In this document: positions 12,786 through 21,568 of the stretch, piece by piece
How the letters are laid out: the number at the start of each line of letters is the position of its first letter
How positions within the stretch are numbered: position 1 is the stretch's first letter
DNA from: a virus
Length of the DNA stretch: 26,587 bases
IMG/VR virus record: IMGVR_UViG_3300032282_001845
Location: 1-26,587 of that record
Reading direction: 5' to 3' (one strand)
Notes under the pieces: generated by a model
What the model was told of the DNA's origin: nothing
Database searches by the model: none
What the model saw: only the letters and a program-made list of their open reading frames with translations
Program-made: the position numbers and the translations under genes

Positions 12786-13142
12786 CTATTCTGGCGCATC
12801 CTGACGCACTTTGCGCCTGTAGTGCATTTGTCCATGGCACATGTAGCACAGAACCTGGACATCTTCCATCAACTCACCGCCGAGTCGAATGTATGTCACA
12901 TGATGCACATCGAGCTTGTAGCCGTCATCCTGTCGACGGCCACACTGCTCACATGTCCTACAGCTGCGTTCGAGTGCTTTGGTGCGGATGTCTTGCCATC
13001 GCTGTGAGCGCATGTATTTGCGACGGTAGTCGCGCCACGTCTCATCGATGACCTGACTCGATGCCCCGATTGCTTTGAGTAGGCTGTAGGTGTTTGCCCA
13101 TGGCTTCGCCATGATGCTCCTTACGACTTTATCTGTGTCCAT
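12786..13142 (-). CDS. HNH endonuclease next to terminase
   Basis: A 118-residue HNH nuclease. Helical N-terminus, then YMRSQRWQDIRTKALER, a Cys pair (C64, C67 in CEQCG), LDVHHVTYIRLGGE (His80-His81) and a second Cys pair (C99, C102 in LCYMCHGQ). These are zinc-ribbon plus HNH metal-binding features. HNH proteins beside terminases take part in DNA packaging in cos phages such as HK97 (gp74), so a role in end cleavage is likely. Start ATG has AAGGA 9 bases upstream and lies inside the end of the preceding Tad2-like gene (22-base overlap). Confidence 0.88.
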   Translation of the reverse strand: MDTDKVVRSIMAKPWANTYSLLKAIGASSQVIDETWRDYRRKYMRSQRWQDIRTKALERSCRTCEQCGRRQDDGYKLDVHHVTYIRLGGELMEDVQVLCYMCHGQMHYRRKVRQDAPE

Positions 13143-13366
13143 TTGATTTCGTCCTTTACAGGATGGAACTCACCATGCATCCAGTCATCCGCGAACATGG
13201 ATTCAGGATCCAGTGTGAGACCTTGTAAGGTCTTCGACTCACCACCCGTATGCATCACGAATGCCTCGAAAATGTCGGCATACCGAATGTATAACTCATG
13301 GTCCCACGATGCGCGAGTGATTGGCTTGCCATGCATCAATGGCTGTATTACTTCTTCAAATTTCAT
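13121..13366 (-). CDS. Tad2/DUF2829-like small protein
   Basis: An 81-residue protein. The start MKFEEVIQPLMHGKPITRASW matches the pattern F..a...L..GK.i.R..W at the beginning of DUF2829 proteins, the family that includes Thoeris anti-defence protein Tad2, which sequesters cyclic ADP-ribose signalling molecules. Near the end, FADDW (residues 58-62) matches the conserved L(A/x)(D/E)DW. About 20 residues follow. The ATG overlaps the stop of the HTH-Tad2-like gene by 11 bases. The family call is pattern-based; anti-defence activity is an inference. Confidence 0.6.
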   Translation of the reverse strand: MKFEEVIQPLMHGKPITRASWDHELYIRYADIFEAFVMHTGGESKTLQGLTLDPESMFADDWMHGEFHPVKDEIKWTQIKS

Positions 13367-13940
13367 CGATTATTGTCCAATCTTTAGCCAGAACATCAGG
13401 ACCACTGAATGTGGCGAATCCTTTACAGCGCCATGAATTTGCGCCATCGAGTTCGTAGCGCATCAGCGCACTGTCTACGATTTGCACCTTCCATCTGGCA
13501 CCATCACGCTGTACCGCTTTGCCATCGCGAATGTGTTCCAGGACAAAGTCGAATCCTTTGCGTGTATGCGAATTCGGTGTATTGCCAATATTTGGCGATT
13601 TGCCACAATGGACGTGAAATTCCACTCGAAGTGATGGCTCACTTGTCAACCACTTCATAAAGCGTTTGTGATCGATGCCGCTTAATGCGATTGCTTCCCT
13701 GCGACCTACGCCATCGGCAATCTGTTCTGCCACATCGATGATGATTGATTTCTTCTCGTCGTATGTGTATGCGATTTCACTTGGAAACTGATGTCCACCT
13801 TGACCAGCTTCATTGAGCCAGCGGGATATCGTTGCCCTGGTGCAATTCACCAGTCGTGCAGCTTCACTGATGCTTTTCCCCGATGCTCGCAACTGAGCGA
13901 CCCGATCGAGGATTTGTGCGCGTTCGTCTTCTTTTACCAT
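13356..13940 (-). CDS. Helix-turn-helix protein with C-terminal Tad2/DUF2829-like domain
   Basis: A 194-residue protein in three parts. Residues ~5-45 form a resolvase-like HTH (LRASGKSISEAARLVNCTRA then TISRWLNEAG). Residues ~62-100 look like a second HTH (DVAEQIADGVGRREAIALSG). Residues ~129-194 are Tad2/DUF2829-like: FDFVLEHIRDGKAVQRDGARW at the start of the domain and DVLAKDWTIIDEI at the end. DNA binding plus possible ligand binding suggests a regulator that senses a small molecule, but this is inference. The start has AGGGAG 7 bases upstream. It heads the cluster leading to HNH, TerS and TerL. Confidence 0.65.
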   Translation of the reverse strand: MVKEDERAQILDRVAQLRASGKSISEAARLVNCTRATISRWLNEAGQGGHQFPSEIAYTYDEKKSIIIDVAEQIADGVGRREAIALSGIDHKRFMKWLTSEPSLRVEFHVHCGKSPNIGNTPNSHTRKGFDFVLEHIRDGKAVQRDGARWKVQIVDSALMRYELDGANSWRCKGFATFSGPDVLAKDWTIIDEI

Positions 13941-13957
13941 CGTTTATCTCCCTACAA

Positions 13958-14000
13958 AGTAAAAACACCAGGCACACCCCATGCGTATGAGTGTGCCTGG
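13958..14000 (-). terminator. Rho-independent terminator after the SSB-like gene
   Basis: A perfect 10-bp inverted repeat CCAGGCACAC / GTGTGCCTGG (13968-13977 and 13991-14000) with a 13-base loop. On the minus strand it is followed by TGTTTTTACTTTG, so it ends the helicase/SSB transcript before the HTH-Tad2-like gene. Confidence 0.85.
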
Positions 14001-14033
14001 CTGTCAGCGAGTGTCGGCAACCGGGAGACTTGG

Positions 14034-14534
14034 TTACTCGCTGGCATCCTCACCGAAGGGGTCTTCGATGTCATCAGCCTTGATGGTTGGCTGTGCAATC
14101 TTTGTCAGCTTTTTCTTGGCTGTCACAGGACTCACAGAAACAATGGCATTCGTCATGTAGCCACGCGTGTTGAGCTTCGCGTCGACTGCAACCATCCACT
14201 CCTTCGCCGTGAGCGTGTCAATGTCAAGTGCGTGAAACTCGGCCTGTGTGAGACGACGTCCGAGCATGCCATCAAGCAGGATGGTCAATGCTTGCTTGTC
14301 GTTGCCATATCCCTGGCGGGTGAACTTCACGAAGCGGAAGGCGTTGCCGTTGGTGTCGCCATACTCAGTGGTCTCGAACGTGAACTTGAAGTTCGGAAGC
14401 ATAACATTCGGATCATCATACGATGGTCGGTCGATGCTCTCGACGTTTGCGAGACGGCAGACATAGGCGCCTGCGGCAGCTGCTTCAAACTGTGCTGTGC
14501 CATCGTTGAACGTGGCGGAAGAAAAGAACCCCAT
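14034..14534 (-). CDS. Probable single-stranded DNA-binding protein (SSB-like)
   Basis: A 166-residue protein. The beginning (MGFFSSATFNDGTAQFEAA) and strands with VCRLANVE, NFKFTFETTEYGDTNGNA and NAIVSVSPVTAKKKL fit an OB-fold-like beta protein, and the C-terminus is strongly acidic (DDIEDPFGEDASE), resembling the SSB tail that binds partner proteins. It follows the primase and helicase, so a replication role is likely. I chose the ATG at 14534: AAAGGAG lies ~10 bases upstream, whereas the ATG at 14543 is only one base after it. A weak promoter-like pair lies ~95-125 bases upstream. A DUF669-type replication protein is an alternative. Confidence 0.55.
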   Translation of the reverse strand: MGFFSSATFNDGTAQFEAAAAGAYVCRLANVESIDRPSYDDPNVMLPNFKFTFETTEYGDTNGNAFRFVKFTRQGYGNDKQALTILLDGMLGRRLTQAEFHALDIDTLTAKEWMVAVDAKLNTRGYMTNAIVSVSPVTAKKKLTKIAQPTIKADDIEDPFGEDASE

Positions 14535-14627
14535 AACTCTCATACTCCTTTGGCCATAGGCCACTCGTTTGATGTTGGTGATGGTCTCAATTACCAATCC
14601 AAGGTTATTACCACCACCAACGTGTCA

Positions 14628-14657
14628 ACGATACCAAACATCAAACCATCCTGTCAA
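14628..14657 (-). promoter_or_regulatory. Candidate promoter for the SSB-like gene
   Basis: On the minus strand, TTGACA (14657-14652) is followed after 18 bases by TATCGT (14633-14628). The -35 is consensus, the -10 matches 4 of 6. A second TTGACA (14627-14622 region) lies just downstream and shares GTTGACAC with the operator at 19021, so regulation by the same repressor is possible. Confidence 0.4.
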
Positions 14658-14786
14658 GAAGAAGTTGATGCTGTTCCGTGGGCCAGCGTAAGCGCCCGGC
14701 CCGCAGGAACAGTTTCAACTCATACACCCTTAGCCAGCATCATTCAAACATGCTGGCAGGGGGGATTCCAAAGGGGGGATTTTCCT

Positions 14787-14851
14787 GACCTGTTCCCGTT
14801 TCTTTATCCTTAAGGGCGGAACAGGTCGGGAACAGGTCGCGGGAACAGGTC
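14787..14851. repeat. Iteron-like direct repeats GGAACAGGTC with inverted copy
   Basis: Three direct copies spaced 11 and 13 bases apart plus an inverted copy 20 bases upstream across an A+T-rich stretch (TTTCTTTATCCTTAA). The inverted and last direct copies could pair over 12 bases (GACCTGTTCCCG with CGGGAACAGGTC). No T-run follows, so a terminator is unlikely. Confidence 0.75.
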
Positions 14852-14857
14852 AAACGC

Positions 14858-16165
14858 CTATAAAAGACCAGTCGGACGGTACAGTTTTGCGTTCCTGGGA
14901 CCCTTGTCAAATGCCACGATTCGACTGGCCTCAAGGTCCGCAAGTGTAGCTGCGACGACCGATTTTCGACCGCCACACAACTCCGCCAGACGTGCCTGAG
15001 AAATACCTGGTGTTTCACTGATCAGTTCAATGAGCTTCGAGCGAATCTCTTGTGTGATGGCTTCACTTCGTGCGCCAGCATCGAGCGTCCTGACCTTCGT
15101 GAGGCCATCCTCATCGCGAATCTCGAAGGTCACATCGATGGCGTCATCATCACTGATGAGACGGCCCTTAGTCACGTACATGCGGTAGAGGCCGTTTGCT
15201 TGCTTCTCGACCGAATAGGCCATGTCAGCAGCTGCGACAATCTCGGCTGCACCTCGCATACCTTCGTGCTTGACGGTTGAGTCCGTGCCACCTTTGCGGT
15301 TATGGTGAGCGATCAGGACAGTGATTCCGACGTCCAGAAGTTTCTTGAACGCGTCGTAGAGTTTACGCATCTGGGAGTTGTCATTTTCATCCATGCCATG
15401 GATGCGGACCAGCGAGTCAATCATTACGAGACCGACACCTGTGGTTTGACAGTGCTTGACAACGCGTTCGACGTCGAGCGTATTGTCGAACCTGATGCCG
15501 ACTCGGTTCAGGTAGCCCATTCCTTCAGCCGAACGCATTCCGAGCTTCCTGAGCCGTTGTAGGACCTTCTGGACGCCCATCTCCTCATCGACGTAAAGGA
15601 CTCGCGTCTGTGGAATCTCAAACTCGTTGAGCCATGAGCCACCAAAGCAACAGGCGCGAATGAGATCGCAAATGACCCAAGTCTTGCCACTTCCTGGCGG
15701 AGACGAAAGATAATGCAGACCACCAGTAGACAACACGTTCGGAATCAACCAGGACTGTTCGCCGAGTTTTGCTTCCTCGGTCTCCATTCTGGTCCAATCC
15801 CACACTTCCCACGGTGCGACTGTCTGTCCGCCTGGAAGGTCATCAGGCACAGAACCCGCTGCCCATTGACTCCAGAACCGTCCGACGGTCTCGAGGATGA
15901 CTTCGCGCTCGAGTGGCGGGTCACAGTAAGTGTCACTCCACCACACCGCTTGAAGCTGTGCGACATCGATGCTGTAGCGCTTTGCCCTGAAGAATCCTAA
16001 GAGCGTGACCAGTGCATTGTTTCGGCCACCGAAGGCGCCACCAGATGCAGGATGCGGTTGCCACAGTTTGTCCCAGTGATGCTCGCCATGCGCAATGATG
16101 CGAGCATGAGTTTCCATGTCTCCGGCCACCATGAGCCGGAGATCGTCCAGTGAAAGTTCGTCCAT
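14858..16165 (-). CDS. RepA-like replicative helicase with N-terminal PriCT-like segment
   Basis: A 435-residue ATPase of the RepA/RecA-like AAA_25 hexameric helicase type. Walker A is SSPPGSGKTW (residues ~154-163), an acidic strand VLYVDEE follows (189-195), Walker B is GLVMIDSLVRI (245-255), and a sensor-like LIAHHNRKGG near 287-296. Residues ~35-105 include SGGAFGGRNNALVTLLGFFR, reminiscent of primase C-terminal (PriCT) domains. The C-terminus (~375-435) looks like a winged helix (SQARLAELCGGRKSVVAATL). It lies 10 bases after the primase gene, so the two act as a primase-helicase pair. It probably unwinds DNA at the replication fork. Confidence 0.85.
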   Translation of the reverse strand: MDELSLDDLRLMVAGDMETHARIIAHGEHHWDKLWQPHPASGGAFGGRNNALVTLLGFFRAKRYSIDVAQLQAVWWSDTYCDPPLEREVILETVGRFWSQWAAGSVPDDLPGGQTVAPWEVWDWTRMETEEAKLGEQSWLIPNVLSTGGLHYLSSPPGSGKTWVICDLIRACCFGGSWLNEFEIPQTRVLYVDEEMGVQKVLQRLRKLGMRSAEGMGYLNRVGIRFDNTLDVERVVKHCQTTGVGLVMIDSLVRIHGMDENDNSQMRKLYDAFKKLLDVGITVLIAHHNRKGGTDSTVKHEGMRGAAEIVAAADMAYSVEKQANGLYRMYVTKGRLISDDDAIDVTFEIRDEDGLTKVRTLDAGARSEAITQEIRSKLIELISETPGISQARLAELCGGRKSVVAATLADLEASRIVAFDKGPRNAKLYRPTGLL

Positions 16166-16175
16166 TCCTATCCCT

Positions 16176-17012
16176 TCAAACTGTTAGGTCCTGCGTGTCC
16201 AGCGCAGTGGTTACCAATATACGACACTCCTCGGCATGTGCGACCATCCCCATTGTCCGCATCTGCTCGATGCCGATGATGGCATGATTGAAACAATACA
16301 GCAGGTATCGACCATGCTTGTATTGTCCGATGTCCCAGTTTCCACGCTCGCGTGTTGGAAGGTCTCCCGCTTTGGCTGATATCAACAGTCGAGACCACTC
16401 ATCACCCCATGGATGCGCGGATGTTGTCTCCTTGACGATTATGGAGGCTTCTGGCGGGTACTTTGCGAGTTCGACCAACCGAGGCAGTTCTCGGTTTTTC
16501 CAGTTTAGAGTTCCAGGAACTCGTAAGATTCTTGACGGGTTCTTGCACTTGATGTCTGCGGATGAACTGAGCGAGAGCATCCATCGCTCGAGCAGCTGTA
16601 CGAACTCGCGCTGTTCTGTTGGCTTAGTCCCAATGCCAGCAACCTTGAGCCTTCGGTAGCAGTGGAGACCCTTTCCCGAGCGTACCGCGACTGTGACCTT
16701 ATCAAGTGTTGCAGTCTGATCCAGACCAGTAAGGTCATCGATGTCACACCAAAGTACGCCAGCAGTATGGACGTCATTGTCTCTTCCTCCTTTACGCCAG
16801 CGTGGAAGTACGCCGACGTACACGTCATTTCCCTCGTCACTCCACTGGACGCATGCATGGGCGAGTCCAGTCCAATCGTCTTCCGTCCTTGGAAGCTCAT
16901 AAAATCGCATCTGATTTCGTCCTTGATTCAGACATCGAATCTCGACGAAGCCATCTGGATATGGCTCAAACAGCCATGACAGAAATGTCACGGCCTGTGA
17001 TACACGGTTCAT
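16176..17012 (-). CDS. PrimPol-type DNA primase
   Basis: A 278-residue protein with features of archaeo-eukaryotic primase/PrimPol or RepB-like primases: acidic catalytic motif LWCDIDD (residues 87-93), the SGKGLHCYRRL motif with His117 (112-122), and NPSRILRVPGTLNWKN (158-173). It would synthesise primers, possibly also extend them. The PriCT-like part is absent here and appears at the N-terminus of the next gene, so a primase-helicase fusion seems split in two. Start ATG has AAGGGG 5 bases upstream. A rightward gene begins only 21 bases away, so promoter elements must lie inside neighbouring genes. Confidence 0.85.
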   Translation of the reverse strand: MNRVSQAVTFLSWLFEPYPDGFVEIRCLNQGRNQMRFYELPRTEDDWTGLAHACVQWSDEGNDVYVGVLPRWRKGGRDNDVHTAGVLWCDIDDLTGLDQTATLDKVTVAVRSGKGLHCYRRLKVAGIGTKPTEQREFVQLLERWMLSLSSSADIKCKNPSRILRVPGTLNWKNRELPRLVELAKYPPEASIIVKETTSAHPWGDEWSRLLISAKAGDLPTRERGNWDIGQYKHGRYLLYCFNHAIIGIEQMRTMGMVAHAEECRILVTTALDTQDLTV

Positions 17013-17033
17013 TATTTCCCCTTACAATCCTGT

Positions 17034-17327
17034 ATGTCCAAACAGGTTCCGACACATTACCGCACAAAGTCTATTCAGCCAATCGACGTGATTTCCGCAT
17101 ACAGCCTCGACTTCTCACGAGGCAATGCGTTGAAGTATTTACTCCGAGCAGGCACAAAAGACAGCGAAGATAAAACCGACGATCTCCTCAAAGCAATCTG
17201 GTACCTGGTGTATGAACTTCACGGTGTCGAGCTGGCGGATGAAATCAACGAATCACTCAGTGCTGCCACGCATGCCACTCGAGATGCCAAGATAATCACA
17301 TGTGACCTCAACTGCTTCGTGCCATGA
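17034..17327 (+). CDS. DUF3310 protein
   Basis: A 97-residue protein of the DUF3310 family: HYRTKSIQPIDVISAYSLDF then GNALKYLLRAGTKDSEDKTD and DLLKAIWYLVYEL. The family is common in phages, often annotated as nucleotide kinase without firm proof. It is alone on the plus strand within leftward genes. Its 3' end overlaps the VRR-NUC gene on the opposite strand by 75 bases, so its last ~25 residues are antisense to that gene. There is no Shine-Dalgarno; TACAAT at 17023-17028 would put a transcript start almost on the ATG, hinting at a leaderless message. The family call is firm, the expression idea weak. Confidence 0.85.
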   Translation: MSKQVPTHYRTKSIQPIDVISAYSLDFSRGNALKYLLRAGTKDSEDKTDDLLKAIWYLVYELHGVELADEINESLSAATHATRDAKIITCDLNCFVP

Positions 17328-17627
17328 ATAGCACACGGCCCACGAATATGACTCACCGACAGCTGCGCGAAACGCATTTTGTCCGACAGTCAGTTTGTTC
17401 GTTCCAGCCTTCATTTCAATCCACAGGCCACAATGCTGTCCCATCTGGACAGGGACAAAGATGTCCCATACGCCAGATCTGACACCTTCAGCCTTCAAAC
17501 GACCGGCAGTCGCCTTCGTACGGTATCCACCGTTTGGCACGGCGAAGATGACATCGAGACGCTGGTCACGGCCACCCATCATGTGACACCAACGGAAATA
17601 AGCAATCTGATGTTCTGACTCGTTCAA
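17253..17627 (-). CDS. VRR-NUC domain nuclease
   Basis: A 124-residue nuclease of the VRR-NUC family (PD-(D/E)XK superfamily, PF08774), found in phages as stand-alone proteins and linked to Holliday-junction or flap processing. Motifs: ESEHQIAYFRW with Glu5, FAVPNGG (28-34), GVRSGVWDIFVP with Asp55, LWIEMKAGTNKLT with Glu71 and Lys73, and Gln83. The start is TTG at 17627, overlapping the sigma factor TGA (TTGA), with GAGAGGA 7 bases upstream. The 3' end overlaps DUF3310 convergently. Confidence 0.88.
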   Translation of the reverse strand: MNESEHQIAYFRWCHMMGGRDQRLDVIFAVPNGGYRTKATAGRLKAEGVRSGVWDIFVPVQMGQHCGLWIEMKAGTNKLTVGQNAFRAAVGESYSWAVCYSWHEAVEVTCDYLGISSGMRGSTE

Positions 17628-18532
17628 AGTTCCATCCTCTCGAAAATCTGCGCCAGGATATCGGCGCCGGCATTGACGCGAAGTTTCGCAATTGCGCGGA
17701 CCTGTATCTGTCTGATGCGCTCGCGACTGTAACCGATCAGGAGACCGACGTCCTCGAGTGAGCGACCATCACATAAACCATCGAAGCCAAATCGAAGGCG
17801 AAGACATGCGACCTCACGGTCGGTGAGTATTGCCATCATGCTTCGCAGCTGTGCATAGAGTTCCTCCTTGTCTAGACTGTCCTGCACAGGTTTGTCAGCC
17901 GACGGGATGAAGTCGTACTTGCTTTGACCATAGGTGTTGACCTCATCAAAGCTCGACACAATCTTGGTGTCGTGTCTGAGGATTTCGGCTAGGTATTCAA
18001 CGTCAAGTGAATCGATTTGTTTGTGAAGGTATTTCGGGTAAGTATGCTTGACTTCGCGAACGTACTCGAGAAGTTCCGCCGGAGTCGGTGGTTGTCCATG
18101 CTTGAACGTGTACTCATGGCGTGAAACTCTGATGTGCGACAGCTTCGCAATGGCGTGAGACGGTAGACGAATGTCGCGACCACGACTCTCGACACCGCGA
18201 CCGATAGCCTGGCGAATCCAGTTGGTGGCGTATGTGCTGAAGCGATGACCGAGTGACCAGTCGTACCGCTGGACTGCATGATGCAGGCCTAGCATTCCGT
18301 CCGTCATCATGTCCTCGTGTTCGCACCCACGGCCACGGAACTTCTTGGCGATGGCGCTGACCATCCTGACATTGTGTTCAATCAGCTCAGCGGTTGCTTT
18401 GTCTTTGTCCTTTTGGCTCCCTGCTTGCACCATGCGACCGAGGAAGAACTCCTCCTCCTTCGTGAGGAGTCCATCTGTGCTGGCGCGTCTACTTATGCGG
18501 TACTGAGACCAAGTCTTGATGGTGTCAGTCAC
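17624..18532 (-). CDS. Sigma-70 family RNA polymerase sigma factor
   Basis: A 302-residue sigma factor. Region 1.2/2.1 includes AELIEHNVRMVSAIAKKFRG (~48-67). Regions 2.2-2.4 carry DMMTDGMLGLHHAVQRYDWS and HRFSTYATNWIRQAIGRGVE (~74-115). Region 3 resembles LSHIRVSRHEYTFKHGQPP. Region 4.2 is LTDREVACLRLRFGFDG followed by the helix-turn-helix RSLEDVGLLIGYSRERIRQI. It resembles a primary-like group sigma, shorter at the N-terminus, and not an ECF sigma. It probably redirects host polymerase to phage promoters. The GTG start overlaps the zinc-ribbon gene by 8 bases (CGTGACTGA); Shine-Dalgarno is weak, so translation is probably coupled. Confidence 0.9.
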   Translation of the reverse strand: MTDTIKTWSQYRISRRASTDGLLTKEEEFFLGRMVQAGSQKDKDKATAELIEHNVRMVSAIAKKFRGRGCEHEDMMTDGMLGLHHAVQRYDWSLGHRFSTYATNWIRQAIGRGVESRGRDIRLPSHAIAKLSHIRVSRHEYTFKHGQPPTPAELLEYVREVKHTYPKYLHKQIDSLDVEYLAEILRHDTKIVSSFDEVNTYGQSKYDFIPSADKPVQDSLDKEELYAQLRSMMAILTDREVACLRLRFGFDGLCDGRSLEDVGLLIGYSRERIRQIQVRAIAKLRVNAGADILAQIFERMEL

Positions 18533-18791
18533 GAGCTTGCATAGCCTGATGTACGCGGTGATCTGGACTATTTGGCGTGTTCCAATCGGATGCCATCATG
18601 CATGCGGTCCATACAGCCAGGACAACGATTACGAATCCGCCGAGTGTCTGGATTCGCATCATCATGCGTTGACGTCGCTCGCGACGTAGTTGACGCTGTG
18701 AGCAGATGTGGCAGATTCGATGTCCACGGCCATAAGGCACGATGTTCGGTCGATGGCATTCTATGCAGCTGAGTTTGATATTTGTGTCCAT
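18525..18791 (-). CDS. Membrane-anchored zinc-ribbon protein
   Basis: An 88-residue protein. Two Cys pairs (C9/C12 in CIEC and C27/C30 in CHIC) suggest a zinc ribbon. A basic stretch (QLRRERRQR) and a hydrophobic segment at ~50-67 (LGGFVIVVLAVWTACMMA) indicate a single membrane span with the zinc domain inside by the positive-inside rule. It precedes the sigma factor with an 8-base overlap. ATG chosen because AAGGA lies 8 bases upstream; a longer frame to 19028 overlaps the HTH gene and is rejected. A role as anti-sigma factor is possible by analogy with membrane zinc anti-sigmas, but there is no direct evidence. Confidence 0.65.
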   Translation of the reverse strand: MDTNIKLSCIECHRPNIVPYGRGHRICHICSQRQLRRERRQRMMMRIQTLGGFVIVVLAVWTACMMASDWNTPNSPDHRVHQAMQARD

Positions 18792-18808
18792 AGGGTTCGT
18801 CCTTCTAT

Positions 18809-19030
18809 CTATTCTGGGAGTGATTGGCCTGCACGTTTGCAGTAAAACCATTGTGCTACTTCGTTTTCTGTACGACCAACAGCATCGGCGAGGCGCTTGA
18901 TGGTCGAGTGTCTGACAGCATATGCACCGGAAAGCATCCGACACACTGCTGATCGATTGATGCCGAGTCGCTGTGCGATCTCGACTTGTGTGAATCCATA
19001 CATGCCGACAATATTCCACAGTTGACACAT
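18809..19030 (-). CDS. Small HTH (XRE-like) transcription regulator
   Basis: A 73-residue protein with a Cro/C1-type helix-turn-helix: TQVEIAQRLGINRSAVCRML then TIKRLADAVGRTENEVAQW. It likely represses divergent promoters at 19021-19050. The ATG at 19030 lies inside the palindromic operator and has no Shine-Dalgarno. The internal ATG at 19003 would give 64 residues and suits a promoter with TCGACA and CATAAT separated by 15 bases on the minus strand (CATAAT at 19034-19029). The start is therefore uncertain. It is transcribed together with the zinc-ribbon and sigma genes. Confidence 0.75.
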   Translation of the reverse strand: MCQLWNIVGMYGFTQVEIAQRLGINRSAVCRMLSGAYAVRHSTIKRLADAVGRTENEVAQWFYCKRAGQSLPE

Positions 19031-19039
19031 TATGTCAAC
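19021..19039. promoter_or_regulatory. Palindromic operator GTTGACA-N5-TGTCAAC
   Basis: A 19-base inverted repeat with perfect 7-bp arms around CATTA. It covers the -35 element of the rightward promoter and the start region of the HTH gene, the usual place for the binding site of the divergently encoded repressor. A related half-site GTTGACAC occurs upstream of the SSB-like gene. Confidence 0.7.
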
Positions 19040-19050
19040 AGGGTTATGAT
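19022..19050 (+). promoter_or_regulatory. Sigma-70 promoter of the rightward operon
   Basis: TTGACA (19022-19027), a 17-base spacer and TATGAT (19045-19050) match the bacterial sigma-70 consensus in 11 of 12 positions with ideal spacing. Transcription would begin near 19057, 28 bases before the first ATG at 19085. Confidence 0.8.
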
Positions 19051-19084
19051 GTCGATGTGGTTGGACACCACGAAGGGATAAGAA

Positions 19085-19564
19085 ATGGACGAACGGATTG
19101 AACTGAAGTGGAAGTGTGGTCACACTGCCACTTTCACTTTTGGCTATAGCCATCACGAACTCAAAGCGAAAATGCGCCTCATGGCCTCGACGCTGAACAT
19201 CTGCGATATATGCCAGGCGCAGATTGAAGCAGACCACGCGTGGACTTATGTGCAGCTGATGCTTGAACCTAAACCAGTGACATTGACTGGCAGCGAAAAG
19301 CAGATCGCATGGGCGAGGTCGATTCGCACTGCTAAGTACGAAGCACTGGCGCTTGTCCTAGACTGCCTGCGTGAAGCGCACAGGACACGACAGGACGAAT
19401 GGACGGCCATCGCACAGGCCATCAAGCCAGTGGTCGCAGATGTGTCTATATGGCGGTCGTATACGCAGTCAGGAGCCATCATCGAGCGGCGCAACATCAA
19501 CTGGACGACAGCGTTTAGAAATGCGCTCAGCCGGGCAGGATTACATCTGGGAGGTTTGGTATGA
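19085..19564 (+). CDS. Hypothetical protein with zinc-ribbon-like N-terminus
   Basis: A 159-residue protein, first in the rightward operon. Residues 10-43 contain KCGH (C11, H13) and ICDIC (C40, C43), a likely zinc site. Residues ~68-81 read TGSEKQIAWARSIR, a short motif I have seen in other small bacterial and phage proteins without a known role. The rest is helical with WTAIAQAIK and WTTAFRNALSRAG. The ATG has GAAGGG ~8 bases upstream; the stop overlaps the ERF start. I do not recognise the family. Operon context suggests an early or replication role. Confidence 0.65.
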   Translation: MDERIELKWKCGHTATFTFGYSHHELKAKMRLMASTLNICDICQAQIEADHAWTYVQLMLEPKPVTLTGSEKQIAWARSIRTAKYEALALVLDCLREAHRTRQDEWTAIAQAIKPVVADVSIWRSYTQSGAIIERRNINWTTAFRNALSRAGLHLGGLV

Positions 19565-20109
19565 CAATGTCGGAGACAATCGGTGCAATCGCACCAGCGC
19601 TGGTCAAGGCACAGGCCGAGATCAAACCAATCGTAAAGGATTCCACGAATCCTGCGTTCAGAAGTAAGTACACATCACTCGATGCCATCATGGAGGTTGT
19701 TCGACCAGTGATGGCGAAACATGGTTTGTTCGTCGTGCAGTCGGTGCTTGACACCATCGATGGCGAGCATTCGACCAGCATCACCGTCGAGAGCCGTGTG
19801 ATTCACAGCTCAGGTGAATGGATTGCTGGTGTCGTGCAGGTTCCTGTGATGCAACAGACCAGCCACGGATTCGGATCAGCACTCTCGTATGGTCGACGTT
19901 ACAGCCTCAGTGCGCTTCTGTCGCTGGCATCTGACGAGGATGACGATGGCAATGGCGCGATAGGCCAACAGCCACAAGCACGGCCACAAATCAAGCCAGG
20001 ACCGCCACAGCAGACCACGCTGCGCAAGCTTGCACCACAGGCGAAGCCGATACCTGGTTATCACAACGGTTCACACTTCGTTATCGGTGAAGAGGACCCG
20101 AACGCATGA
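19561..20109 (+). CDS. erf: ERF family single-strand annealing recombinase
   Basis: A 182-residue protein of the ERF superfamily (PF04404), which anneals complementary single DNA strands and promotes recombination or circularisation of phage DNA. Typical segments: ALVKAQAEIKPIVKDSTNPA then FRSKYTSLDAIM (33-44), FGSALSYGRRYSLSALLSLA (104-123) and an acidic SDEDDDGNG. A Pro/Gln-rich linker (QARPQIKPGPPQQ) leads to a short C-terminal segment. GGGAGG lies 6 bases before the ATG. Overlaps with both neighbours suggest coupled translation. Confidence 0.9.
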   Translation: MTMSETIGAIAPALVKAQAEIKPIVKDSTNPAFRSKYTSLDAIMEVVRPVMAKHGLFVVQSVLDTIDGEHSTSITVESRVIHSSGEWIAGVVQVPVMQQTSHGFGSALSYGRRYSLSALLSLASDEDDDGNGAIGQQPQARPQIKPGPPQQTTLRKLAPQAKPIPGYHNGSHFVIGEEDPNA

Positions 20110-20408
20110 CATCTGAATGTTTCTACTGTGGAGTGATGTACTGTCACTCCACAAAGAATCATGGCGATCACATGCCAATACCAGAACGCAACGGAGGCAC
20201 GGACATTGTTCCGTGCTGTTCCGCTTGTCACGACATGAAGGACAGGATTCCACTACACGAATGGCATTCTGTCGCATGGAAAGAAATTAATGCTTCGTGG
20301 CCCTTGTATGGCCGTTACACCAGAATATTCCTGGCGAAGGCATTGTCATTGATGACTGACTTTAATCAAAGAGTTCGAGATGAAGAGGAGGCAAACGATG
20401 AAATTTGA
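20106..20408 (+). CDS. Small HNH/zinc-finger nuclease-like protein
   Basis: A 100-residue protein with C5-x2-C8 (CFYCG), DHMPIPERNGGTDIV (21-35) and CCSACHDMK (37-45), matching the HNH layout in which a DH and a later C-x2-C-H segment bind metal. The remainder is helical and polar. Homing-type or recombination nuclease roles are both possible; location after erf suggests DNA processing. Start overlaps the erf stop, with GAGGA 9 bases upstream. Catalytic competence is likely but unproven. Confidence 0.7.
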   Translation: MTSECFYCGVMYCHSTKNHGDHMPIPERNGGTDIVPCCSACHDMKDRIPLHEWHSVAWKEINASWPLYGRYTRIFLAKALSLMTDFNQRVRDEEEANDEI

Positions 20409-20712
20409 ACTGGCCTTTGAAGCCCTACGCCATGGCTACTGCATCACAGTGCAAGAAAACAAAGCTCTCTGGTACAGATACGATCAGGGGATGCAGGCTG
20501 TACGCGCATATGTGAACAGCCTGTTTATGTCATATAAGCTTGACTTCCCTACTGACCGCATCATGACTGATGGTTGGCAGGTTGGTGTTTACATCGAAGG
20601 CAATACACCACTCTGGCTTGACATTCCAGATGCTTACGACATCGAGCAGATTATGCAGTATGCCGAAATCGCACTGGAAGAACGCGAACAACGATTAGCA
20701 GGCACTCTATGA
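20398..20712 (+). CDS. Tad2/DUF2829-like small protein
   Basis: A 104-residue protein. MKFELAFEALRHGYCITV resembles the DUF2829 N-terminus (F..A...L..G..i) and DRIMTDGWQV (residues 53-62) matches the conserved (D)xLxxDW end. It lacks the usual first Trp of R..W and has a longer helical tail (AYDIEQIMQYAEIALEERE). The ATG at 20398 is preceded by GAGGAGG 6 bases upstream; an upstream ATG at 20380 is unlikely. Family assignment is tentative; the anti-defence role of Tad2 may or may not apply. Confidence 0.5.
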   Translation: MKFELAFEALRHGYCITVQENKALWYRYDQGMQAVRAYVNSLFMSYKLDFPTDRIMTDGWQVGVYIEGNTPLWLDIPDAYDIEQIMQYAEIALEEREQRLAGTL

Positions 20713-20942
20713 CAGGACTTGAAGCATTAATTAGATTGAAGATGCGTTTAAAAGCTCGTCGTAAAGAATGGGAAGAAAAGCAATACGCATATGTCCACAC
20801 AATTACCCGTAAGGATGGAACAGTAATCACAGGCGTTATTATCTATAACGATATACCCAACGGCGGTATTTGCTCTCATGTTCCAGTGCGTTACGTAGAA
20901 GCAAGTGAGCTTCTCAAAGATGACTGGGAGGTTGTTGAATGA
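20709..20942 (+). CDS. Small protein with Tad2/DUF2829-like end motifs
   Basis: A 77-residue protein, ATGA overlap with its neighbour. LEALIRLKMRLKARRKEW at residues ~4-21 resembles the family start (al..Lk...k.rR.eW) and it ends in ELLKDDWEVVE, the DUF2829-like closing motif. The middle is beta-rich (AYVHTITRKDGTVITGVIIY). The family call is tentative because the middle is unlike typical Tad2. It lies between a similar gene and thyX. Confidence 0.45.
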   Translation: MTGLEALIRLKMRLKARRKEWEEKQYAYVHTITRKDGTVITGVIIYNDIPNGGICSHVPVRYVEASELLKDDWEVVE

Positions 20943-21568
20943 CGAAACTTGTATGGATAACGCCAGATGCCGAGAAGGTCATCGGGTATTGCGCTCGAGT
21001 CTCCAACCCATCGAACCAGGACAATCCTGACGTCACGAGGTTGCTTCGGTATTGCGTCGGTCACGGACACTGGTCAATCTTTGAGATGGCATCGATGTGC
21101 GTCGAGATCAAGACCACGAGAGCCATTGCAGCTCAGATTCTTCGACATCGGTCGTTTTCGTTTCAGGAGTTCAGTCAGCGATACGCGACCGTGGTCGAGG
21201 ACATCGATGTCCCAGAGATGCGCCTTGCAGGCTCTAACAATCGGCAATCCAGCCTGCCATTACCTGCCATCGAGGAACTGACAAAAGAACAGCAGGATGC
21301 TCTGTATTTGGTCAATAGCACCATCGAGTTCGCGACCGACGTGTATCGCGATCTCGTCAAGAATGGAATGGCTGCGGAGACTGCTCGCATGGTCCTACCG
21401 CTTTGCACTCCGACCACGATGTACATGAGCGGAAGCATCCGCTCCTGGATACATTATGTCCAACTGCGTACACGCCAGGACACGCAGCTCGAGCATCGCG
21501 ACATCGCGCAAAGCATCCAGAACCTCATGCTGGAACATCTGCCGATAACGATGGAGGCGCTAGGTTAA
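20939..21568 (+). CDS. thyX: Flavin-dependent thymidylate synthase ThyX
   Basis: A 209-residue ThyX, which makes dTMP from dUMP using FAD, NAD(P)H and methylene-tetrahydrofolate, supplying DNA synthesis. The signature RHR.xSxxExSxRY is present as RHRSFSFQEFSQRY (69-82), with HGHWSIFEM (42-50) near the flavin site, ARMVLPLCTPTTMY and RSWIHYVQLRTRQDTQLEHR toward the C-terminus. Length is typical. GGGAGG lies 7 bases before the ATG, which overlaps the previous stop. Confidence 0.95.
   Translation: MTKLVWITPDAEKVIGYCARVSNPSNQDNPDVTRLLRYCVGHGHWSIFEMASMCVEIKTTRAIAAQILRHRSFSFQEFSQRYATVVEDIDVPEMRLAGSNNRQSSLPLPAIEELTKEQQDALYLVNSTIEFATDVYRDLVKNGMAAETARMVLPLCTPTTMYMSGSIRSWIHYVQLRTRQDTQLEHRDIAQSIQNLMLEHLPITMEALG

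What the first reader, a model, noticed from the sequence alone, without database searches (positions are those of the whole stretch)
13121..20942. Four divergent Tad2/DUF2829-like proteins in one phage
Proteins at 13121-13366, 13356-13940 (C-terminal part), 20398-20712 and 20709-20942 all have, to varying degree, a start like F..A...L..GK.i.R..W and an end like L..DDW.v. DUF2829 includes Tad2, which sequesters Thoeris and some CBASS signalling molecules. Several copies with different middles in two operons may target different cyclic nucleotides. The first two are clear to my eye, the last two weaker.
Basis: partly seen in the sequence, partly recalled or inferred. Interest (0 to 1): 0.8.

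Follow-up and report, generated by a model that had tools for sequence, protein, structure and literature searches.

The report
Swappable Tad2-fold gene family in freshwater phages
This uncultured phage and its relatives carry up to seven different small proteins related to Tad2, a known viral immune-signal sponge; several of them sit in two gene slots where they are gained, lost and swapped, which looks like a fast-changing toolkit against bacterial immunity, although the known Tad2 ligand-site residues are missing and what they bind is unknown.

Summary
P1 (13121-13366) and P4 (20709-20942) exceed Pfam's PF11195 (Tad2-like) cut-off. The C-terminal part of P2 (13356-13940) falls below it by sequence, but its AlphaFold model has Tad2 crystal structures as the ten best PDB matches (Z 8.0-9.7, 1.7-1.8 A). 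P3 (20398-20712) is probable only: profile evidence supports it, its model was poor.

Related IMG/VR contigs showed more. Reference phages with Tad2 had one clear copy each (13 of 13); this clade has up to seven. P2-P1 is a fixed block in 78 of 78 loci. Other Tad2-like genes come and go between P2 and P1 (slot A) and between ERF and ThyX (slot B); 21 contigs show ten slot B contents. P4 is AT-rich and moves between backbones: its synonymous divergence is lower than adjacent ThyX in 27 of 27 pairs. P2 is an HTH-HTH-Tad2 fusion.

The sponge interpretation is only partly supported: the WNGK and W-x-P/A-S-x-x-D signatures of known Tad2s occur in none of 99 clade proteins. Best reading: a divergent Tad2-fold family used as exchangeable anti-defence cassettes with changed targets, led by a DNA-binding version that may autoregulate. 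New variant of a known kind; function untested.

The parts
13121..13366 (-). P1: 81-aa Tad2-like protein, fixed member of slot A, with an extra conserved C-terminal tail (GEFHPVKDEIKWTQ)
   Evidence: PF11195 30.5 bits over cut-off 25; follows P2 in 78 of 78 loci that reach the HNH gene; dN/dS 0.12
13356..13940 (-). P2: 194-aa fusion: HTH (aa 1-54), second HTH (aa 57-114), Tad2-fold domain (aa 127-192)
   Evidence: HTH_23 41.5 bits; AF2 model with Tad2 PDB chains Z 8.0-9.7 for the C-terminus, HTH chains up to Z 7.4 for 1-54, Sf6 TerS Z 6.7 for 57-114; N-terminal part replaced in L053/L054 while the C-terminus is kept
20398..20712 (+). P3: 104-aa probable Tad2-like protein with an added C-terminal stretch
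   Evidence: profile-profile 79-91%; no Pfam hit; AF2 inconclusive; fused in frame to a P4-type domain in L073/L078
20709..20942 (+). P4: 77-aa Tad2-like protein, accessory cassette
   Evidence: PF11195 28.4 bits over cut-off 25; GC3 0.33 against 0.65 for ThyX; dS lower than ThyX in 27 of 27 pairs; found in slot A in L090
12786..13142 (-). HNH endonuclease next to P1 (edge of slot A)
   Evidence: PF01844 28.6 bits
20106..20408 (+). HNH-like small protein (paired Cys pattern, read by eye) next to P3 (edge of slot B)
   Evidence: sequence pattern only; no Pfam hit
20939..21568 (+). ThyX thymidylate synthase, right edge of slot B; its ATG overlaps P4's stop
   Evidence: PF02511 154 bits
19561..20109 (+). 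ERF recombinase, left edge of slot B
   Evidence: PF04404 98.6 bits
13968..14000 (-). terminator-like hairpin (CCAGGCACACTC / GGGTGTGCCTGG, then a T-run) between the SSB-like gene and P2
   Evidence: both arms change together across contigs
19022..19050 (+). sigma-70-like promoter candidate (TTGACA-17-TATGAT, 11 of 12) ahead of the operon with ERF, P3, P4 and ThyX
   Evidence: consensus scan only; total number of hits not above shuffles

Best explanation
The four proteins belong to a divergent Tad2-fold (PF11195) gene family that has multiplied in one clade of small uncultured phages. Shown: homology or fold (P1, P2 C-terminus, P4; P3 probable), several copies per genome, a fixed P2-P1 block, exchange of other copies in two slots, and recent lateral spread of P4. 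Inferred: the accessory copies (P4 and its alternatives) are anti-defence cassettes that bind immune messengers or defence proteins at sites altered from those of known Tad2s; different middles mean different targets; the phage swaps them by recombination, perhaps helped by HNH endonucleases at the slot edges, by conserved gene ends and by stop/start overlaps. P2 is a Tad2 domain fused to DNA-binding domains and most likely represses or tunes its own operon, like HTH-fused anti-CRISPRs (AcrIIA1, AcrIIA15), possibly in response to a ligand bound by its Tad2 domain.
For: Homology. P2 fold. Copy number: seven Tad2-like genes in a 12-kb contig against one clear copy in each of 13 reference phages (SPO1 has one further sub-threshold match). 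Slot B: ten different contents among 21 contigs while ERF is 92-99% and ThyX 89-99% identical to the window. Paralogue groups C4 and C5 occur in both slots. P4: dS 0.05 against 0.52 for ThyX, lower in 27 of 27 pairs; GC3 0.33 against 0.56-0.65 for most core genes; dN/dS 0.51 against 0.09 for ThyX. Most genes end in ATGA, which can overlap the next start (74 of 108). Precedents: AcrIIA15 represses its own transcription (PMC10901769); a phage homing endonuclease amplifies anti-defence genes (PMC13096335); Tad2s bind different messengers (gcADPR, cyclic dinucleotides, His-ADPR; PMC12043709, PMC13299392).
Against: The ligand-site signatures of known Tad2s are absent from all 99 clade proteins. P1, P2 and P3 are under purifying selection (dN/dS 0.12-0.18) and P2-P1 is universal in the loci examined, unlike a dispensable anti-defence gene. 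P3's fold was not confirmed. The hairpin upstream of P2 does not vary with the type of P2 HTH, so it is not evidence for an operator. The host is unknown, so no cognate defence system can be named. No expression or binding data.
Confidence: 0.5

Rival explanations
1. The family does a core phage job, not anti-defence: P2 is a regulator or packaging-linked DNA-binding protein whose Tad2-fold domain serves oligomerisation or partner binding, and P1 (and P3) are its partners.
For: P2-P1 sits before HNH-TerS-TerL in 78 of 78 loci; P1, P2 and P3 are under purifying selection; P2's middle domain resembles the Sf6 terminase small subunit HTH (Z 6.7; PF20901 weakly in 3 of 15 members); pocket signatures lost.
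Against: Does not explain the gain, loss and lateral spread of P4-type genes or their AT-rich composition; in the distant relatives L077/L078 the P2-type gene lies beside P3 and ThyX.
Confidence: 0.27
2. They are ordinary Tad2 sponges that bind gcADPR, His-ADPR or cyclic dinucleotides as SPO1 Tad2, ModTad2 or HgmTad2 do.
For: Same fold and family; Tad2 relatives bind several messengers (PMC12043709, PMC13299392).
Against: W[ND]GK.[ML] and W.[PA]S..D..A.DW signatures in 0 of 99 clade proteins against 10 and 9 of 13 reference proteins; best clade family score 36 bits against 53-94 bits in reference phages.
Confidence: 0.13
3. They are protein-binding inhibitors such as anti-CRISPRs; the Tad2-like protein AcrIIA7 is named as an inhibitor of type II CRISPR-Cas.
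For: AcrIIA7/HgmTad2 chains are among the matches of the clade profile and of the P2 model; HTH-fused anti-CRISPRs exist (PMC10901769).
Against: No host, CRISPR system or Cas target is known; nothing in the sequences points to Cas binding.
Confidence: 0.07

Closest known systems
Tad2 (SPO1 gp34.65; ModTad2; HgmTad2/AcrIIA7; SptTad2), Pfam PF11195
   Same: Fold (P2 C-terminus Z 8.0-9.7), family profile, conserved N-terminal stretch with R-x(1-3)-W and terminal DW
   Different: Ligand-site signatures absent; multicopy; one type fused to HTH domains; low family scores; ligands unknown
HTH-fused anti-CRISPRs (AcrIIA1, AcrIIA15) and Aca regulators
   Same: A DNA-binding N-terminus joined to a small counter-defence-type domain (P2)
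   Different: P2's C-terminus is a Tad2 fold with two HTH domains before it; neither repression nor inhibition has been tested
Homing-endonuclease-driven amplification of anti-defence genes (SegB, phage T6; PMC13096335)
   Same: Endonuclease genes at the edges of multi-copy candidate anti-defence loci
   Different: HNH rather than SegB; diverged paralogues rather than identical repeats; no experiment

Membership tests
PF11195 Tad2-like (DUF2829) | P1 and P4: score over Pfam's gathering cut-off (25 bits) | tested here: met
   P1 30.5 and P4 28.4 bits
PF11195 Tad2-like (DUF2829) | P2 C-terminal domain: fold of solved Tad2 structures | tested here: met
   8wjd Z 9.7, 1.8 A over 65 residues; 8wje, 9eib and 8kbi Z 9.0; sequence score alone is below the Pfam cut-off
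PF11195 Tad2-like (DUF2829) | P3: score or fold of the family | tested here: inconclusive
   No Pfam hit; profile-profile 79-91%; AF2 pLDDT 61 without a match
Tad2 nucleotide sponge | Signature residues of characterised sponges (WNGK...; W-x-P/A-S-x-x-D) | tested here: not met
   0 of 99 clade proteins; 10 and 9 of 13 reference phages. The signature stands in for contact residues, which were not read from coordinates
Tad2 nucleotide sponge | Binding of gcADPR, His-ADPR or cyclic dinucleotides | not testable with these tools
   needs purified protein
Tad2 nucleotide sponge | Homotetramer of two V-shaped dimers | not tested
   monomer predictions only
HTH-fused anti-CRISPR/Aca-type autoregulator (P2) | DNA-binding HTH domain in the same polypeptide | tested here: met
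   PF13384 41.5 bits, cut-off 24.6; HTH_23 in 15 of 15 family members
HTH-fused anti-CRISPR/Aca-type autoregulator (P2) | Operator in its own promoter region | tested here: inconclusive
   The conserved hairpin upstream is terminator-like and nearly identical between P2 types with different HTHs

The most novel reading that the evidence does not exclude
A phage clade keeps a combinatorial, recombining repertoire of Tad2-fold proteins with altered binding sites, each aimed at a different and perhaps undescribed immune messenger, under a ligand-responsive HTH-Tad2 repressor that senses a host immune signal and switches the repertoire on.
Probability: 0.12. Interest if true: 0.92.

Novelty: new variant of a known kind. 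Interest (0 to 1): 0.62.

Why it matters
Tad2 is known as a sponge that, in the reference phages checked here, occurs once per genome. A clade with up to seven diverged Tad2-fold proteins in a small genome, some of them swapped between backbones and all lacking the known ligand-site signature, points to unexplored ligands or targets for this fold and gives a ready set of natural variants with which to search for immune signals. The HTH-Tad2 fusion raises the testable idea of a phage regulator that reads host immune messengers.

Tried and rejected
Sequence searches of the PDB with P1 or P4 alone, or with the P1 family alone, gave no Tad2 hit; only the diverse clade profile did. The P3 AF2 model was poor and its PDB second look listed no Tad2 chain (best Z 4.0); treated as inconclusive. 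Foldseek against the PDB with the three-domain P2 model listed no Tad2 chain in its top 50; VIA-align resolved this. An alignment of the P3-P4 fusion with single P3 and P4 rows misaligned and was not folded. The hairpin upstream of P2 as its operator: rejected, since it is terminator-like and does not follow HTH type. Host identification by P1 or TerL in 84,980 species genomes: no relatives of P1, only 29-31% TerL matches. P2 and P4 in 50,697 phage records: no match. Column-shuffle controls for the P4 profile gave three anomalously high values of 60 that I could not explain; P4 rests on its Pfam score instead. Excess of identical codons at the 3' ends of cassettes is only moderate (79 of 117, expected 57), so DNA-level homology at gene ends as the recombination handle is a suggestion only. 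No Rfam match or tRNA in the window.

Full report
Setting. The window is an uncultured virus record of 26,587 bases, 53% GC, with portal, TerL, an AAA ATPase, a sigma-70 factor, an ERF recombinase and ThyX. Its relatives are IMG/VR contigs. The host is unknown: P1 has no relative in one genome each of 84,980 species, and TerL only 29-31% matches.

Are the four proteins Tad2-like? P1 and P4 pass PF11195's curated cut-off. P2 does not by sequence, but its family profile matches the Tad2-like profile (96.4%, controls at most 1.6%). AF2 without templates gives a C-terminal helix, four strands, a short helix and a strand, and the ten best PDB matches are all Tad2 or AcrIIA7 chains (Z 8.0-9.7, 1.7-1.8 A, 59-65 residues). 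P2's residues 1-54 and 57-114 resemble HTH folds. P3 has profile support but a poor model. A profile of 22 small clade proteins without any known Tad2 finds all seven Tad2/AcrIIA7 sequences of the PDB and nothing else significant.

Copy number. PF11195 was scanned over 34 related contigs and 13 Tad2-bearing reference phages. Each reference phage has one clear match, even at 250 kb (SPO1 adds one weak sub-threshold match). The clade has several per 10-30 kb; L077 has seven Tad2-like genes in 12 kb. The best clade score is 36 bits, against 53-94 bits in reference phages. The reference phages were chosen by similarity to SPO1 Tad2, so this is a comparison, not a census.

Anatomy and turnover. Slot A lies between P2 and P1, followed by HNH, TerS and TerL. 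P2-P1 is present in 78 of 78 loci, 16 of which hold one or two further Tad2-like genes between them (in two of the 78, P1 was recognised as a diverged variant by reading the sequence). Slot B lies between ERF/HNH2 and ThyX; 21 contigs show ten contents, including none (counted from the map). Groups C4 (P4) and C5 occur in both slots. For P4, dS is lower than in adjacent ThyX and in ERF in 27 of 27 contig pairs (medians 0.05, 0.52, 0.51), and its GC3 is 0.33 against 0.65 for ThyX. I read this as recent lateral exchange of a foreign-looking gene. The pairs share contigs, so 27 is not a count of independent events. dN/dS is 0.12-0.18 for P1, P2 and P3, 0.51 for P4 and 0.09 for ThyX. Most Tad2-like genes end in ATGA, so a stop can overlap the next start. 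In L073/L078 P3 is fused to a P4-type domain.

Ligand site. The W[ND]GK.[ML] and W.[PA]S..D..A.DW signatures occur in 10 and 9 of 13 reference proteins and in none of 99 clade proteins; the R-x-W and terminal DW motifs are mostly kept (66 and 85 of 99). I therefore infer a kept fold with a changed site. Contact residues were not read from coordinates, so this is a signature test.

Function. The accessory members have the genomic behaviour of anti-defence genes, and the fold is that of known sponges; the inference of changed targets follows but is untested. P1 and P2 behave as core genes. P2's HTH-HTH-Tad2 layout resembles AcrIIA1/AcrIIA15; for AcrIIA15 the protein represses its own transcription (PMC10901769). 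Autoregulation by P2 is my best guess. The core-function rival is serious (0.27).

Novelty. I found no report of multicopy Tad2-like repertoires or HTH-Tad2 fusions in the literature searched, which covers open-licence papers only. P2 and P4 have no match in 50,697 phage records. I rate it a new variant of a known kind.

Noticed in passing
13968-14000 (-): Hairpin followed by a T-run between the SSB-like gene and P2, whose arms change together across contigs; terminator-like, just ahead of the P2-P1-HNH-TerS-TerL block.
   Followed up: partly
L086:2664-2948, L080:7246-7524: A further protein (MTDNEEFEIVDGITALQRIKEDPEYWIRPVSWNKESYVVLL...) that by eye looks like another highly diverged Tad2-like member; no Pfam hit for the L086 copy.
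   Followed up: partly
L078:8759-9307: Natural in-frame fusion of P3 with a P4-type Tad2-like domain, suggesting the two neighbours act together.
   Followed up: partly
17624-18532 (-): Phage-encoded sigma-70 family factor with regions 2 and 4.
   Followed up: no
L053, L054, L088: P2's Tad2-like C-terminal domain kept almost unchanged while the HTH part is replaced: domain-level module swapping.
   Followed up: partly
L079:10505-11206, L083:2125-2829, L096:3024-3725: A 233-aa protein lies in slot B in some relatives; no Pfam hit for the L079 copy.
   Followed up: no
L122:184-903: Bacteroides phage BS-TP1 carries a crAss001_48-Tad2-like fusion, another Tad2 domain architecture.
   Followed up: no
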